Notes under the pieces: model-generated
Told to the model about the DNA's origin: nothing
The model's input: the letters and a program-made list of their open reading frames with translations, nothing else
The model's database searches: none
Part shown: in pieces, positions 5,244 through 62,800 of the stretch
How the letters are laid out: every line of letters starts with the position of its first letter
How positions within the stretch are numbered: position 1 is the stretch's first letter
NCBI RefSeq assembly: GCF_964204645.1
Contig: NC_134026.1
Location: forward strand, 19,052,650-19,116,649
Source: Tubulanus polymorphus
Lineage: Eukaryota > Nemertea > Palaeonemertea > Tubulaniformes > Tubulanidae
Reading direction: 5' to 3'
Length of the DNA stretch: 64,000 nucleotides
Position numbers and translations under genes: made by a program

Positions 5244-5249
5244 TACGTC

Positions 5250-5606
5250 AGTAATAGGGGTTTAGTTGTTCTAAGCCAAAGGTCGAACGGTCGAGAAATT
5301 TTCCAAATTTGAAAATAACAATAATTTCAGCTTGAATTAGTCGCGTACACTCCTAATTCAAACCGAAATTATTGTTATTTTCAAATTTGGAAAATTTCTC
5401 AACCGCTCAACCTTTGACTTAGAACAACTAAACCCCTATTACTCTTAAAATATTTATATACATGAATAAAATATATATGAATAACATATAAATTGATAGA
5501 TTATTCAATATAAAAGTGTTAGTAAAAAAGTAACGAGGAATTAACGAGCTCTTATAGAATAGATATATAGATAAATTTTAAACATATTTCAATAATTATA
5601 TTTGTA
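5250..5606 (+). repeat. Left terminal inverted repeat, containing a 194-bp palindrome
   Basis: The arm matches the reverse complement of 7856-8212 over its whole length. Its outer 194 bp (5250-5443) is itself a near-perfect palindrome centred near 5346, so the terminal motif AGTAATAGGGG occurs inverted at 5433-5443 as well. Confidence 0.9.
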
Positions 5607-5648
5607 TGAGTTAGATTTTTAAACATTAAAAGTGTTAGTAAAGTGTGA

Positions 5649-5968
5649 GTGAAATAATTCATATTTAAAACAGTGAATATTTATATTTATGTGTGTTAAA
5701 TTCTTATTTTTTAACATAAAAAGTGTGAGTAAAGTGTGAGTGAAATAATTCATATTTAAAACAGTGAATATTTATATTTATATGCGTTAAATTCTTATTT
5801 TCAATATAAAAAGTAACGAGTAATTAACGAGTGAAATAATTCATATTTAAAACAGTGAATATTTATATTTATATGTGTTAGATTCTTATTTTTAAACATA
5901 AAAAGTGTGAGTAAAGTGTGAGTGAAATAATTTATATTTAAAACAGTGAATATTTATATTTGAATGAG
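5649..5968 (+). repeat. 91-bp tandem repeat, about 3.5 copies
   Basis: The phrase GTGAAATAATTCATATTTAA begins at 5649, 5740, 5831 and 5922, an exact 91-bp period, with AAAACAGTGAATATTTATATT following each time. It lies between the left terminal repeat and the ORF of the element and could be a promoter-like or subterminal binding array; this is inference. Confidence 0.9.
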
Positions 5969-5994
5969 TTTTAATAAAAATTTTGTTATAAAAA

Positions 5995-6655
5995 ATGAAG
6001 AAAGAAGAAGAAGAACCTAACTTTAAAATCGAAATCAATGAAACCAATAAATCATTTTCACAGTTTAACATTAAAAACATAACATTTAATATTTAACATT
6101 TCAGCAACAAATTTAGTGTCCGCAAGACATTATAAAATCGATAACATAACTATGATTAATCAAATATTATCAAATGAAACATATTTGATTACTGAACTAG
6201 TAGATACTTTTGATAATGGCGTTAAAAATCCTAAATTGTTCAATACAGTTTTTAATTTTAAAGGAATTTTAGATGAGAACATAATAAATATTCTTAAAAC
6301 TCCTTTTAATAAAAGAGATAGCGATATAATACTTTCAAAAGATTACAATGATTTGATTAACTTAAGAATTGAAAAAAGACAATTATATTATTTCAATTTT
6401 GATAATAAACAAATTATCTATAATGAAAATTCATCAAATATTGGTATTCAATGTGAATCAGTTAATAATAATTCTTATAAAAATTTTGCAATTCAATGTG
6501 ATTTAGAAAATGAATTCAAAAGATTTAATCCTAATAAAAAATGCATTGTTATTGCGGAGGTAAATATTCAAAATCACATAAATCAAAGCATTATGAAACA
6601 ATTAAACATAAAAACTGGCGTAAAGAGTAACAATTCTACATTAAAAATAAATTAA
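5995..6655 (+). CDS. Hypothetical AT-rich ORF(s) inside the foldback element
   Basis: An ATG at 5995 opens a 33-codon frame starting with a lysine/glutamate-rich stretch. After a possible acceptor (TTTAACATTTCAG, to about 6104) a second frame runs from 6116 to a TAA at 6653-6655, giving 179 aa rich in Asn, Ile and Lys. The two could be joined as exons, but the donor is not obvious. Two short sequence echoes (IGIQCES and FAIQCDL) stand about 25 residues apart. There is no zinc ribbon, no DDE motif and no recognised domain. It is the only non-repetitive coding-like segment in the element. I do not recognise a family. Confidence 0.4.
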
Positions 6656-6704
6656 ATAGTCAAATAATTATTGAATTGAGTTAAATGATTTAGATATCTA
6701 ATAG

Positions 6705-7856
6705 ACTGTTAAAATGATAAATTGTTTGACAGTTGAAATGATAAATTGCTTGACAGTTGAAATGATAAATTGTTTGACAGTTGAAATGATAAATTGTTTG
6801 ACAGTTGAAATGATAAATTGTTTGACAGTTGAAATGATAAATTGTTTGACAGTTGAAATGATAAATTGTTTGACAGTTGAAATGATAAATTGTTTGACAG
6901 TTGAAATGATAAATTGTTTGACAGTTGAAATGATAAATTGTTTGACAGTTGAAGTGATCAATTGTTTGACAGTTGAAATGATCAATTGTTTGACAGTTGA
7001 AATGATCAATTGTTTGACAGTTGAAATGATAAATTGTTTGACAGTTGAAATGATAAATTGTTTGACAGTTGAAATGATAAATTGTTTGACAGTTGAAATG
7101 ATAAATTGTTTGACAGTTGAAATGATAAATTGTTTGACAGTTGAAATGATAAATTGTTTGACAGTTGAAATGATAAATTGTTTGACAGTTGAAATGATCA
7201 ATTGTTTGACAGTTGAAATGATCAATTGTTTGACAGTTGAAATGATAAATTGTTTGACAGTTGAAATGATAAATTGTTTGACAGTTGAAATGATAAATTG
7301 TTTGACAGTTGAAATGATAAATTGTTTAACAGTTGAAATGATAAATTGTTTGACAGTTGAAATGATAAATTGTTTGACAGTTGAAATGATAAATTGTTTG
7401 ACAGTTGAAATGATAAATTGTTTGACAGTTGAAATGATAAATTGTTTGACAGTTGAAGTGATAAATTGTTTGACAGTTGAAATGATCAATTGTTTGACAG
7501 TTGAAATGATCAATTGTTTGACAGTTGAAATGATCAATTGTTTGACAGTTGAAATGATAAATTGTTTGACAGTTGAAATGATAAATTGTTTGACAGTTGA
7601 AATAATAAATTGTTTGACAGTTGAAATGATCAATTGTTTGACAGTTGAAATGATCAATTGTTTGACAGTTGAAATGATCAATTGTTTGACAGTTGAAATG
7701 ATCAATTGTTTGACAGTTGAAATGATCAATTGTTTGACAGTTGAAATGATCAATTGTTTGACAGTTGAAATGATCAATTGTTTGACAGTTGAAATGATCA
7801 ATTGTTTGACAGTTGAAATGATCAATTGTTTGACAGTTGAAATGATCAATTGTTTT
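6705..7856. repeat. 24-bp minisatellite, about 48 copies
   Basis: The unit GTTGAAATGATAAATTGTTTGACA is repeated head to tail with very few changes. The main variant is A/C in GATAAATTG/GATCAATTG, and C-type units occur in blocks (near 6956-7014, 7198-7230, 7487-7542 and 7628-7850). Because 24 is a multiple of three and the unit lacks stops, it is open on both strands (MINCLTVE repeated on plus, IISTVKQL/F on minus). It directly abuts the right terminal repeat. Confidence 0.95.
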
Positions 7857-8212
7857 ACAAATATAAATATTGAAATATGTTTAAAATATATCTATATATC
7901 TATTCTATAAGAGCTCGTTAATTACTCGTTACTTTTTTACTAACACTTTTATATTGAATAATCTATCAATTTATATGTTATTCATGTATATTTGATTCAT
8001 GTATATAAATATTTTAAGAGTAATAGGGGTTTAGTTGTTCTTAGTCAAAGGTTGAGCGGTTGAGAAATTTTCCAAATTTGAAAATAACAATAATTTCGGT
8101 TTGAATTAGGAGTGTACGCGACTAATTCAAGCTGAAATTATTGTTATTTTCAAATTTGGAAAATTTCTCGACCGTTCGACATTTGGCTTAGAACAACTAA
8201 ACCCCTATTACT
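7856..8212 (-). repeat. Right terminal inverted repeat, containing a 194-bp palindrome
   Basis: Reverse complement of the left arm with a few mismatches. The outer 194 bp (8019-8212) is a palindrome, so the terminal motif appears at 8019 and, inverted, at 8212. The right flank is TACGTC at 8213-8218. Confidence 0.9.
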
Positions 8213-8533
8213 TACGTCCAGTGTGATGTTATTGGAATATGAACCATTCGCCTGCCTAAACGGAACAGTGGCAAGCTCAGCCCTCTAAAGGCGTCCGCGA
8301 ATAACCTGGAAATCAACACACCTTTTCAGATACCGGTTCATTATGCATATGTATCAACTAAATGTATCAATCTTTTCTCTTCGAAAGAACCTGGCAGCAT
8401 AATCGACTTCATTATGACGACATGAGTCCAGCATATATAGTTTATGATTTTTACTTCGAAGGTATAAACTATTTGAGATTATTCAGTATGATCACAGTGT
8501 AATTCAATGTTTTTCTTTTATCGTACATATTCG

Positions 8534-36787: not shown

Positions 36788-52853
<16,066 letters not shown>

Positions 52854-59899: not shown

Positions 59900-60212
59900 T
59901 CAAGCTTTAGAAAAAAAATACAACAATCACACCAACGTCCCCTCGTCAAATTCTGACGAAGGATGCGAATAAATAAACAATCATTTGTGTAGTCATGTAA
60001 CTTAAATATATTTCATAGTTCAAAACGTCATGGTAAAAACCGGTTTCGTGAGAGTTTAAAAACTTGAACCTTGATAACACATCTGAGAATCTTGAGATCA
60101 TCGAAAATGTTGAAAATGGGTACCGCAATCTAGTTACTGTTTTTACTAGGGAAACCTCTGAATTCCTGTATCAAATATTTTACCAAGGATTATTTTTTTG
60201 TGTTTTTACTAG

Positions 60213-62800
60213 ATATATGCAGAATGCAGATACCTCGACGGGGATTTCCAGGTAGAACGTTTCCTGAAGGAAGAAGTATATCAGGTAAACTGTCCCCTAG
60301 AAAACTAGGAAATGCAGGAAGTGATGACATTGCAGCCGCTTATTATAAACCAGAGCTTCTCACTGATATCAACGGCGAAACTATAAGTATGTGCCACTCT
60401 CTTGGTTGCAGTGCAAACTGCGACTGTGACCTTTTCCGAAATTGTTGCAACTTAGAAAGGAAGTTTTGTAATCTGAATCAAGAGAGACGAATAAACCTCG
60501 TGAAACAACAACTTCAACGTGCTGATTGCGTGGATGGGTTAATCGCGACTGGAACTTCAAACGGATTTTTTGCAATTAGCCAGTGTCCTGAAAATTACAC
60601 GAATGATTCAACAGTACGGAAATATTGCGAATCTCCGTCGAGCAATATCATAACAACCATACCTGTTTACAAAGATAACTGGTTACCATTCAAAAATATG
60701 TATTGTGCTTTGTGTCATGGCTTCAACATTACCGAGTTTGACGTGGCAAAGGTACATGTGCATTGTTACAACAACACAAATTACATCAATGACGTCATCA
60801 AGAGTGCGCTCAACGTTTCCACTGATTCCAGATATCACCTCATGGAAAGATGCAATTTTGTCTATTCACACAACTATGAACGTCAAGTGATATTACGGCC
60901 ATGTAGTAGAAACTATACCACGCGTAAGAGAAACTGCTCTATGAAATTAGAGGACCCCAATTTGCTCACTAAATGTAACACCATGTTCAATCCTATATCA
61001 GCCGAAGTTGATGGCCAAATAAAAACCTATCGAAACTACTACTGCATAAAATGCGATCTAGGTAATGTAGACAAACACTCCTTGGCTTGCTTGGAGGATA
61101 AGCCCCTTGATAAGACTTTTGGATTGAATGTTATAGTAGACTTGAGTTTGGCAAATGGTGTTAGATTACGAACCCCGGGTATGCCTATCATTTCATGGTT
61201 GTCTAAAGAGATTCTTTGCGCTGACACGAATGAAATTTTTGACGTGGAGACAAACAAATGCTACAAAGACGGTTGTTTTCAAGGGTACCATCAGTCTGGT
61301 GATACATGTTACCTTGATCAAAAAGAATGGCCAAAAATCTCCATTCGTATCATGTTTTCGTTCTTCATCTCTTTCAATGAGACTCAGCGGTTAAAAATGA
61401 AACAATACAATTATGGGCTCGATTACTTCGAGTTTTCCAGTTGTTACATTGATGAAATGATCAAATTAACTGAAATTAGTAATATGTCGATTAATGCAAA
61501 CACTACTTACATGAGGCAGTTTACGCTCCTAGTCTTCGACGAATTTCGAGGCTCAAAAATCAACCTTTCTTTAGTTGCAATGGATTCAATTCTGCACAAA
61601 TACGAATCTTTCATCAACTGCAATTTCGGTGAAGATGGCAGCCGCGTAACGATTTCTAGTTACGAACTATCACCGACGAGTCTAAGTAAGAACACTTTAT
61701 GTCAAGTCGAAGGCAACCACCTTACCACAAGCACAGCAACCACAAACACGGCTGCCGAAAAGTCGATACGAGATGAATCATCAAATGAAATTTTTGCGTC
61801 GTACTATTTACATAAAATCATTTCTGATACCGGTAATGAAAATAAAACGATTAGAACTATCAAATGTTCAACGAAAACGGTCGACTGTGTAAGAACGTTG
61901 TCAGATGAAAATAGATTGGTTTGTCGGTCATCAGACTCGAAGAAAAATGCCAGCCTTTTTTCAGATCAAGATTACCTAATAACTTTCGTATGTAGTTGCC
62001 TCTCGATAATCGGTCTGATAAGCACGATCGTTATTTATCTAGTAATTCCCGAACTTTGTACTATGCCCGGTAAACTTATCATAAACTTCTGCGCGAGTAT
62101 TTTGATGGCCCAAACTCTGCATTTATCCACCACTCGTGTAATCACTAATACATTACTTTGTGTCATCATGGCTACCGTTAAACATTACATGTGGCTCGTT
62201 GTCTTCTTGTCAATGACTGCAATATCTATCCACATGGCATGTACATTCTTCAGTGCTCGGAAATTGGAAAATTCCCCCAAGGTTTTGGTGTACTATCTAC
62301 TATCGGTTTGGCTATTACCTCTCCTGGTTGTTGGACCGTGTATTTTCCTCCAGTTCAGCAATACCACGACTTACGCTGATACGGTTTATGGCAATGTCCA
62401 TATTTGTTGGTTCAAGTCTAGCTCATTCCTCCTCTGCGCTTTCGTAATACCTATCGGTATTCTTAACTTCTTTAACATTATTCTATTCATAAGTTCTTCT
62501 TGTCGGATCAATTACTTGTTCTCCGCAATGCCTACTTCATCCAATGCTAAAAGTGAAAGGAATACAGCAGTCATTTTCTATCGTATGGCATTAGTGACCG
62601 GAATGACTTGGACTATTGGATTCGTAGCTTCTTTCGTTAATAACGATCTGCTCTGGTATTTCTTCAACCATTTGAATTCTTCGCAGGGTTTCCTCGTTTT
62701 CTTGGCTTTTATCGTTAATCGAAAAGTGCTCAAAATGTCTAGAACGAAATTTAAAAAATCGAGGGTTCCGCGGGTGCTTGAAAATGATAAAAGATTTTGA
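60213..62800 (+). CDS. Methuselah-like class-B (adhesion-type) GPCR, large last exon
   Basis: The acceptor TTTTTACTAG ends at 60212; the exon is open for about 862 codons (phase 1 entry) to TGA at 62798-62800. The extracellular part carries GCSANCDCDLFRNCC, a somatomedin-B-like cysteine cluster, then a FKNMYCALCHGFN motif, many N-glycosylation sites and a further CDLGN/C-rich block. Seven membrane helices follow from about 61963 (ITFVCSCLSIIGLISTIVIY) to about 62730, with MTWTIGFVASF in TM6 and SSQGFLVFLAFIVN in TM7. The 7TM part is in a single exon. These receptors are class B/methuselah-related; ligands unknown. A paralogue ends at 167. The protein's true start lies in upstream exons. Confidence 0.88.

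What the first reader, a model, noticed from the sequence alone, without database searches (positions are those of the whole stretch)
5244..8218. Complete 2.96-kb foldback transposon with long inverted ends, 6-bp target duplication and no known protein
Seen: TACGTC on both sides, 357-bp inverted ends starting AGTAATAGGGG, and an interior of a 91-bp repeat, an unrecognised AT-rich ORF and a 24-bp array. Known: 6-bp duplications are typical of Maverick/Polinton and Dada elements, and Polinton ends begin AG. Inference: this is a non-autonomous derivative or an undescribed superfamily member moved by a 6-bp-staggering enzyme encoded elsewhere.
Basis: partly seen in the sequence, partly recalled or inferred. 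Interest (0 to 1): 0.8.

Follow-up and report, generated by a model that had tools for sequence, protein, structure and literature searches.

The report
Gutted Maverick virus-transposon with hairpin ends
This 3-kb stretch is a stripped-down copy of a virus-like giant transposon (Maverick/Polinton) that is abundant in this animal genome; it kept only the ends needed to be moved by intact relatives, and those ends fold into hairpins whose tips change together across the family.

Summary
A 2,963-bp element (5250-8212) lies between TACGTC repeats; six paralogous empty sites confirm the boundaries. The terminus pattern occurs 465 times against 0 control hits, and 39 of 46 tested end pairs carry exact 6-bp duplications. 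Three full-size copies with the same ends encode a rve integrase, an A32-type packaging ATPase, PolB and a capsid protein. So this is a non-autonomous Maverick/Polinton derivative, not a new superfamily. Its ORF is a broken copy of an end gene of the family; open copies elsewhere show signs of purifying selection. The 24-bp array is a family feature, but this element's array/right-end junction is unique. Less expected: 32 of 38 distinct ends sampled are palindromes whose outermost 24 bp match between outer and inner arm although five variants exist, and one 3.1-kb relative is a near-perfect head-to-head duplication. I infer that short forms arise by deletion and copy-back and are integrated in trans; no transposition was shown.

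The parts
5244..5249 (.). left 6-bp target site duplication TACGTC
   Evidence: single copy at paralogous empty sites
5250..5606 (+). left terminal inverted repeat (starts AGTAATAGGGG)
   Evidence: Maverick ends
5250..5443 (.). left terminal palindrome: arms 5250-5340 and 5353-5443, 12-nt gap; outer 24-bp tip 5250-5273, inner inverted copy 5420-5443
5615..5961 (+). 91-bp tandem repeat, 3.8 copies; the stretch that holds it aligns to the end of the 21.8-kb Maverick on C1
6116..6655 (+). remnant of the family's end-proximal ORF (open copies elsewhere about 215 aa); frame interrupted here
6704..7859 (+). 24-bp tandem array, 48.2 copies; same unit in other elements of the family
7856..8212 (-). 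right terminal inverted repeat; its junction with the 24-bp array is found once in the genome
8019..8212 (.). right terminal palindrome: arms 8019-8109 and 8122-8212; outer tip 8189-8212, inner copy 8019-8042
8213..8218 (.). right 6-bp target site duplication TACGTC

Best explanation
The window holds one insertion of a non-autonomous Maverick/Polinton. Shown: it has the termini of a large Maverick family, a 6-bp target duplication at a site that is empty in paralogs, and none of the family's enzymes. Inferred: linear element DNA is copied by a Maverick protein-primed PolB and joined by its AGTAAT ends to a 6-bp staggered target (preference NAYRTN) by a Maverick rve integrase, both supplied in trans. 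Inferred with less certainty: short forms arise during replication by internal deletion and by copy-back at the terminal hairpins, like defective genomes of protein-primed linear DNAs. The hairpins would also let an outer tip be rebuilt from its inner copy, which would explain why the two 24-bp tips vary together.
For: Terminus pattern 227+238 times, reversed-pattern control 0. From 177 listed ends (100 plus the 77 not already in it) 48 inward pairs under 60 kb: 9 of 1.95-5.9 kb, 34 of 15-24.2 kb, 5 others. 45 of these 48 pairs plus the window: 39 of 46 with exact 6-bp TSDs, 38 distinct; 2% after shuffling, a rate that includes pairs the shuffle leaves in place. Three full-size copies: rve (weak chromodomain), Pox_A32 by Pfam in two and by similarity in the third, PolB (PF03175) in all three when the domain is scanned alone, double-jelly-roll capsid fold in one and its close relatives in the other two. 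Empty sites. Short elements with TSDs: a plain internal deletion keeping broken integrase and PolB (L148), a 3,141-bp 97% palindrome with a PolB scrap in each arm (L049), a form with 1.9-kb inverted ends (L146). Tip covariation: 27 of 32 palindromic ends identical at nt 12-24 between arms, in five variants; mean 0.19 mismatches against 4.05 shuffled, while nt 25-36 largely keep arm-specific differences.
Against: No movement or replication was observed. This copy's internal junction is unique, so this derivative shows one insertion, not a proliferating family. The palindrome is not required for insertion: 6 of 38 distinct ends lack it (L044 both, L045 both, L046 one, L048 one), and L045, L046 and L048 have perfect TSDs. 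Of 46 pairs 4 show no TSD, 1 a 5-bp match and 2 only 5 of 6 letters. hmmscan of the whole PolB ORFs of the C1 and C2 copies did not list PF03175; the domain alone does. The genome-wide Pox_A32 search also rang in 2 of 14 control genomes, the PF03175 search in 0 of 14. No protease was recognised among the ORFs scanned. The tips' variants are shared by descent, so the 32 ends are not 32 independent events.
Confidence: 0.92

Rival explanations
1. The short elements are a satellite lineage of the Mavericks, with their own selected gene (the ~215-aa end ORF), not just accidental deletion products.
For: 52 of the 150 best ORF hits lie in 26 convergent pairs 1.2-6.8 kb apart; only 7 ORF-PolB links within 22 kb among 150 ORF hits and 86 PolB sites. 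Open ORFs of full length in short elements with TSDs (L046, L047, L048, L146, L147). Variable sites shared between copies fall 14/4/19 on codon positions 1/2/3 in 12 short-element copies (p 0.009), singletons 17/21/30 (p 0.14); over 23 copies 42/31/60 (p 0.008) against 30/36/33 (p 0.76). dN/dS 0.38 among the 12 short copies, 65 pairs. 4 of these 12 are in elements with checked TSDs (L046, L047, L048, L139); the other 8 are called short only because they lie in convergent ORF pairs.
Against: The same ORF sits in both ends of a full-size Maverick, so selection may act there. Only 150 of 710 ORF candidates and 91 of 1341 PolB candidates were scored, so the lack of association is weak. A neutral simulation gives omega 0.78 with a 5% quantile of 0.43, and pairs are not independent. 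Comparisons that cross the two branches give 0.65. Some of the 26 pairs may be copies of one locus: two have the same length. The window copy is broken.
Confidence: 0.25
2. A classical foldback or MITE-type cut-and-paste element (Dada, Ginger2 or unknown) unrelated to Mavericks.
For: Long inverted ends, 6-bp duplication, no enzyme.
Against: The same ends flank full-size Mavericks with 6-bp TSDs. Ginger2 has TGTNR ends and RTATAY targets according to passages of PMC2836005.
Confidence: 0.02
3. Satellite DNA or assembly artefact.
For: A 48-copy array inside.
Against: Empty sites, distinct flanks and TSDs at dozens of loci.
Confidence: 0.01

Closest known systems
Maverick/Polinton (polintovirus) transposons
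   Same: 6-bp TSD, AG..CT ends, full copies of 15-24 kb, rve integrase, A32/FtsK-type ATPase, PolB, double-jelly-roll capsid protein; AGT-type ends and 6-bp TSDs are reported for vertebrate Mavericks (passages of PMC8097293)
   Different: the window copy has no gene of this set; the ends are hairpin-forming palindromes; the end-proximal ORF has no database relative
Deletion derivatives of protein-primed linear DNAs (kalilo plasmid)
   Same: a shortened derivative said to form hairpins; only the title of that work was seen, in a reference list
   Different: here integrated in chromosomes with 6-bp TSDs
Foldback elements / MITEs (recalled)
   Same: long inverted ends, non-coding or broken interior
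   Different: ends and TSDs are those of Mavericks
Fragmented Mavericks of Mayetiola destructor (PMC8504770, passages)
   Same: short Maverick-related sequences in an insect
   Different: described there as fragmented copies with only a polymerase or integrase domain, not as complete short elements with ends and TSDs

Membership tests
Maverick/Polinton (the family in this genome) | 6-bp target site duplication | tested here: met
   39 of 46 pairs exact
Maverick/Polinton (the family in this genome) | terminal inverted repeats with AG..CT ends | tested here: met
   46 of 46 pairs AGTAATAGGGG..CCCCTATTACT, but the pairs were chosen by a pattern that contains this motif
Maverick/Polinton (the family in this genome) | rve-family integrase | tested here: met
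   C1, C3 and C2 copies: rve E 4e-10, 1e-8, 7e-9, each with a chromodomain match below its cut-off
Maverick/Polinton (the family in this genome) | protein-primed DNA polymerase B | tested here: met
   PF03175 E 1e-19 (C1) and 1.5e-16 (C2) on the domain alone, 8e-7 on a piece of C3; whole-ORF scans missed it in C1 and C2. Protein priming itself not tested
Maverick/Polinton (the family in this genome) | A32/FtsK-type packaging ATPase | tested here: met
   Pox_A32 E 3e-13 (C1) and 2e-12 (C2); pieces in C3 by similarity; 150 of 150 scored matches over the cut-off, 1014 candidates, control rings in 2 of 14 genomes
Maverick/Polinton (the family in this genome) | double-jelly-roll major capsid protein | tested here: met
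   C2 copy: model pLDDT 86; Foldseek to PBCV-1 and iridovirus capsid structures, best E 4e-17, TM about 0.6, identity about 11%
Maverick/Polinton (the family in this genome) | adenovirus-like cysteine protease | tested here: inconclusive
   no protease family among the 28 ORFs of the three copies scanned; not every ORF was scanned
Autonomous Maverick (window element) | encodes integrase, PolB and capsid genes | tested here: not met
   only a broken end ORF and repeats
Non-autonomous Maverick derivative (window element) | family ends plus 6-bp TSD, no enzymes | tested here: met
Non-autonomous Maverick derivative (window element) | mobilisation in trans | not testable with these tools
   inferred from ends and TSD
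Dada | Dada transposase with 6-bp TSD (recalled) | tested here: inconclusive
   no such family among the Pfam hits of the full-size copies; no Dada model was searched for
Ginger2/Tdd | TGTNR ends, RTATAY target (PMC2836005) | tested here: not met
   ends AGTAAT; target preference NAYRTN

The most novel reading that the evidence does not exclude
The short elements are defective-interfering-like satellites of an animal Maverick, generated by copy-back at terminal hairpins and carrying one selected gene. The hairpin tips are maintained by tip-from-inner-copy repair, a hairpin-based end maintenance in a protein-primed element.
Probability: 0.2. Interest if true: 0.75.

Novelty: new variant of a known kind. 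Interest (0 to 1): 0.52.

Why it matters
How Mavericks copy and protect their ends is a question on which I saw no direct evidence in the papers I looked at. A genome with hundreds of Maverick ends, short derivatives and covarying terminal hairpins gives a natural data set for it. It also shows complete short Mavericks with TSDs; a phrase search for non-autonomous or defective Mavericks returned no paper in the open library, which does not cover most subscription journals. And it points to an end-proximal gene with signs of selection and no relative found.

Tried and rejected
End ORF: no Pfam family for the window frame or for a 213-aa copy; one weak PHROG match, E 0.012, not followed; no PDB relative (best E 0.61); none of 120 candidates at E<=0.001 among 5.8 billion proteins; none in viral contigs. 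Its AlphaFold model is of no use (pLDDT 34), so no fold search was made. Integrase in viral contigs: no relative. PolB domain against PDB sequences: none at E<=1.

I first thought that the 15-21-kb pairs might be a different element, because none held a top-scored PolB or end ORF. One such copy was fetched and is a full Maverick. I first thought the short elements were one amplified non-autonomous family; the window's junction is unique and the short forms differ in structure, so this was dropped.

Dropped rows: dN/dS used 26 of 31 ORF hits (3 duplicates and 2 short alignments removed) and 296 of 325 pairs. The PolB list used 86 of 111 rows, second segments of one gene merged by hand. 23 of 100 rows repeated. 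3 of 48 pairs (34, 51 and 59 kb) were not tested for TSDs. L043, whose right end is incomplete, was not among the tested pairs.

Full report
What is there. Between TACGTC at 5244-5249 and 8213-8218 lies a 2,963-bp element. Its terminal inverted repeats are 357 bp long with 7 mismatches. Inside are a 91-bp repeat (5615-5961), an ORF (6116-6655) and 48 copies of a 24-bp repeat (6704-7859). Joined at one TACGTC, the flanks match six sites of a repeated locus on contig C7. There the sequence runs through the junction with a single TACGTC (5 of 6) or TATGTC (1 of 6) and no insert. This is direct evidence of an insertion with a 6-bp duplication.

The family. The window is part of a 268-Mb genome (C2:19052650-19116649); the species is not given, and that it is an animal is inferred from gene content such as a 7tm_2 receptor. 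The terminal 357 bp gave 84 matches, with 40 of 1,478 candidates scored. The outer-terminus pattern occurs 227 times forward and 238 times reverse, against 0 for the reversed control. I paired 177 listed ends: the 100 shown and the 77 that were not among them. This gave 48 inward pairs under 60 kb: 9 of 1.95-5.9 kb, 34 of 15-24.2 kb and 5 of other sizes. Of these, 45 pairs, and the window, were checked for target duplications. 39 of 46 are exact over 6 bp (38 distinct), one matches over 5 bp, two in 5 of 6 letters, four not at all. Shuffled flanks give 2%, which includes pairs left in place by the shuffle. The targets prefer NAYRTN; TACGTC fits it.

What the full-size copies encode. C1:14063817-14085649 (TSD TGCGGA): integrase (rve, weak chromodomain), Pox_A32 ATPase and a 1,687-aa ORF with intein and LAGLIDADG domains; its polymerase domain scanned alone matches PF03175 at E 1e-19, as the genome search had shown. 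C3:17152196-17175564 (TSD AGGGTC): PolB in pieces, integrase, and a nested DDE_Tnp_4 gene. C2:14714546-14732637 (TSD GATATC): integrase, ATPase and a 1,356-aa PolB without the intein (PF03175 E 1.5e-16). Scans of the two whole ORFs had missed the polymerase. The 415-aa protein of the C2 copy models at pLDDT 86 and matches the double-jelly-roll capsid proteins of PBCV-1 and an iridovirus, at about 11% identity; pieces over 90% identical lie in the C1 and C3 copies. All 150 scored Pox_A32 matches in the genome (1,014 candidates) are over the cut-off; that search also rings in 2 of 14 control genomes, the PF03175 search in none. This is a Maverick/Polinton family by every feature tested except the protease, which was not recognised.

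The window element within it. Its left 1.27 kb is 90% identical to the C1 Maverick end. It lacks the Maverick enzymes, so it is non-autonomous. The array/right-end junction occurs once in the genome even with two mismatches allowed. This particular derivative is therefore known from one insertion.

The end ORF. The window frame is interrupted; open copies of about 215 aa exist elsewhere. There are at least 150 matches in the genome (710 candidates, 150 scored), 109 of them without an in-frame stop (counted by hand; the scored ones are the best, so this is biased upwards). They include both ends of the C1 Maverick. A second branch, 31% identical, sits in L043 and L049. No relative was found outside this genome (one weak PHROG match). 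Among 26 distinct open copies, median dN/dS is 0.48 over 296 pairs, 0.43 within the first branch and 0.65 between branches. Over 23 first-branch copies, variable sites shared between copies favour third codon positions (42/31/60, p 0.008), whereas singletons do not (30/36/33, p 0.76). This is what selection before insertion and neutral decay after it would give. A neutral simulation gave omega 0.78 (5% quantile 0.43), so the ratio alone is only moderate evidence.

Short elements are of several kinds. L148 (5.09 kb) is an internal deletion with broken integrase and PolB. L046, L047, L146 and L147 keep the end ORF and arrays, with a second small ORF in L146 and L147; L048 keeps both ORFs but shows no array. 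L049 (3,141 bp) is a 97% palindrome with one ORF, an array and a PolB scrap per arm. L045 is different again. These eight have exact TSDs; L044 (1.95 kb, interrupted ORF and array) has 5 of 6 letters. Such forms are expected from deletion and copy-back during linear DNA replication; that origin is inferred.

Terminal hairpins. Each window end is a 194-bp palindrome (left one fold z -19.5). Among 38 distinct ends held, 32 have an inner inverted copy of the tip, 28 of them 186-205 bp in and four at 332-408 bp. Nucleotides 12-24 of these come in five variants that match between outer and inner copy in 27 of 32 ends (mean 0.19 mismatches, 4.05 when shuffled). Nucleotides 25-36 instead largely keep differences between outer and inner arms. 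So only the tip appears homogenised. I read this as repair or copying of the tip through the hairpin. Against a strict need for it, 6 of 38 ends lack the inner copy, and three of the four elements concerned inserted with perfect TSDs. The sample is biased towards palindromic ends, because most loci were fetched with a palindromic query, some ends belong to one element, and variants are shared by descent.

Literature seen. No paper in the library holds the phrases non-autonomous/nonautonomous Maverick or Polinton, defective Mavericks or miniature Polinton. Searches on palindromes, copy-back and internal deletions returned listings without an obvious match; only the listings were seen. Passages were read of PMC8097293 (6-bp TSDs, AGT ends, 134 intact vertebrate copies), PMC4028283 (gene set), PMC2836005 (Ginger), PMC6431247, PMC6035795 (Mavericks of wasps), PMC8504770 (fragmented Mavericks), PMC12220804 and PMC11071308 (homing endonucleases in polinton PolB). 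The intein is thus not new in kind.

Verdict. Ordinary in class, unusual in anatomy: a non-autonomous Maverick in a genome full of them, with covarying terminal hairpins and an orphan end gene that shows signs of selection.

Noticed in passing
window 38097-44409: A BEL/Pao-type LTR retrotransposon with 257-bp LTRs 99% alike, TGTCG..CGACA ends and a 5-bp AGTGT duplication.
   Followed up: partly
window 60200-62800: Long ORF with a secretin-family 7-transmembrane domain (7tm_2).
   Followed up: no
window 47734-50142: Duplicated stretches; one ORF there has a fibronectin III match just under its cut-off.
   Followed up: no
L032:2907-7967 (-) against L125:4519-8586 (-): Intein-like insertion (LAGLIDADG, plus Intein_splicing below its cut-off) in the PolB of one Maverick, absent from another of the same family.
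   Followed up: partly
G000:C1:16908858-16913763: A run of about 4.9 kb of the 24-bp repeat; 1,691 exact pattern matches genome-wide.
   Followed up: no
L035:2886-4085 (-), L037:4300-6765 (+), L041:616-3066 (-): Other transposon genes between or next to Maverick ends: DDE_Tnp_4, Pao peptidase, reverse transcriptase with a GIY-YIG domain.
   Followed up: no
L032:8453-8803 and L033:157-507: A second small ORF (about 117 aa) with relatives in the short elements L043, L048, L146 and L147.
   Followed up: no
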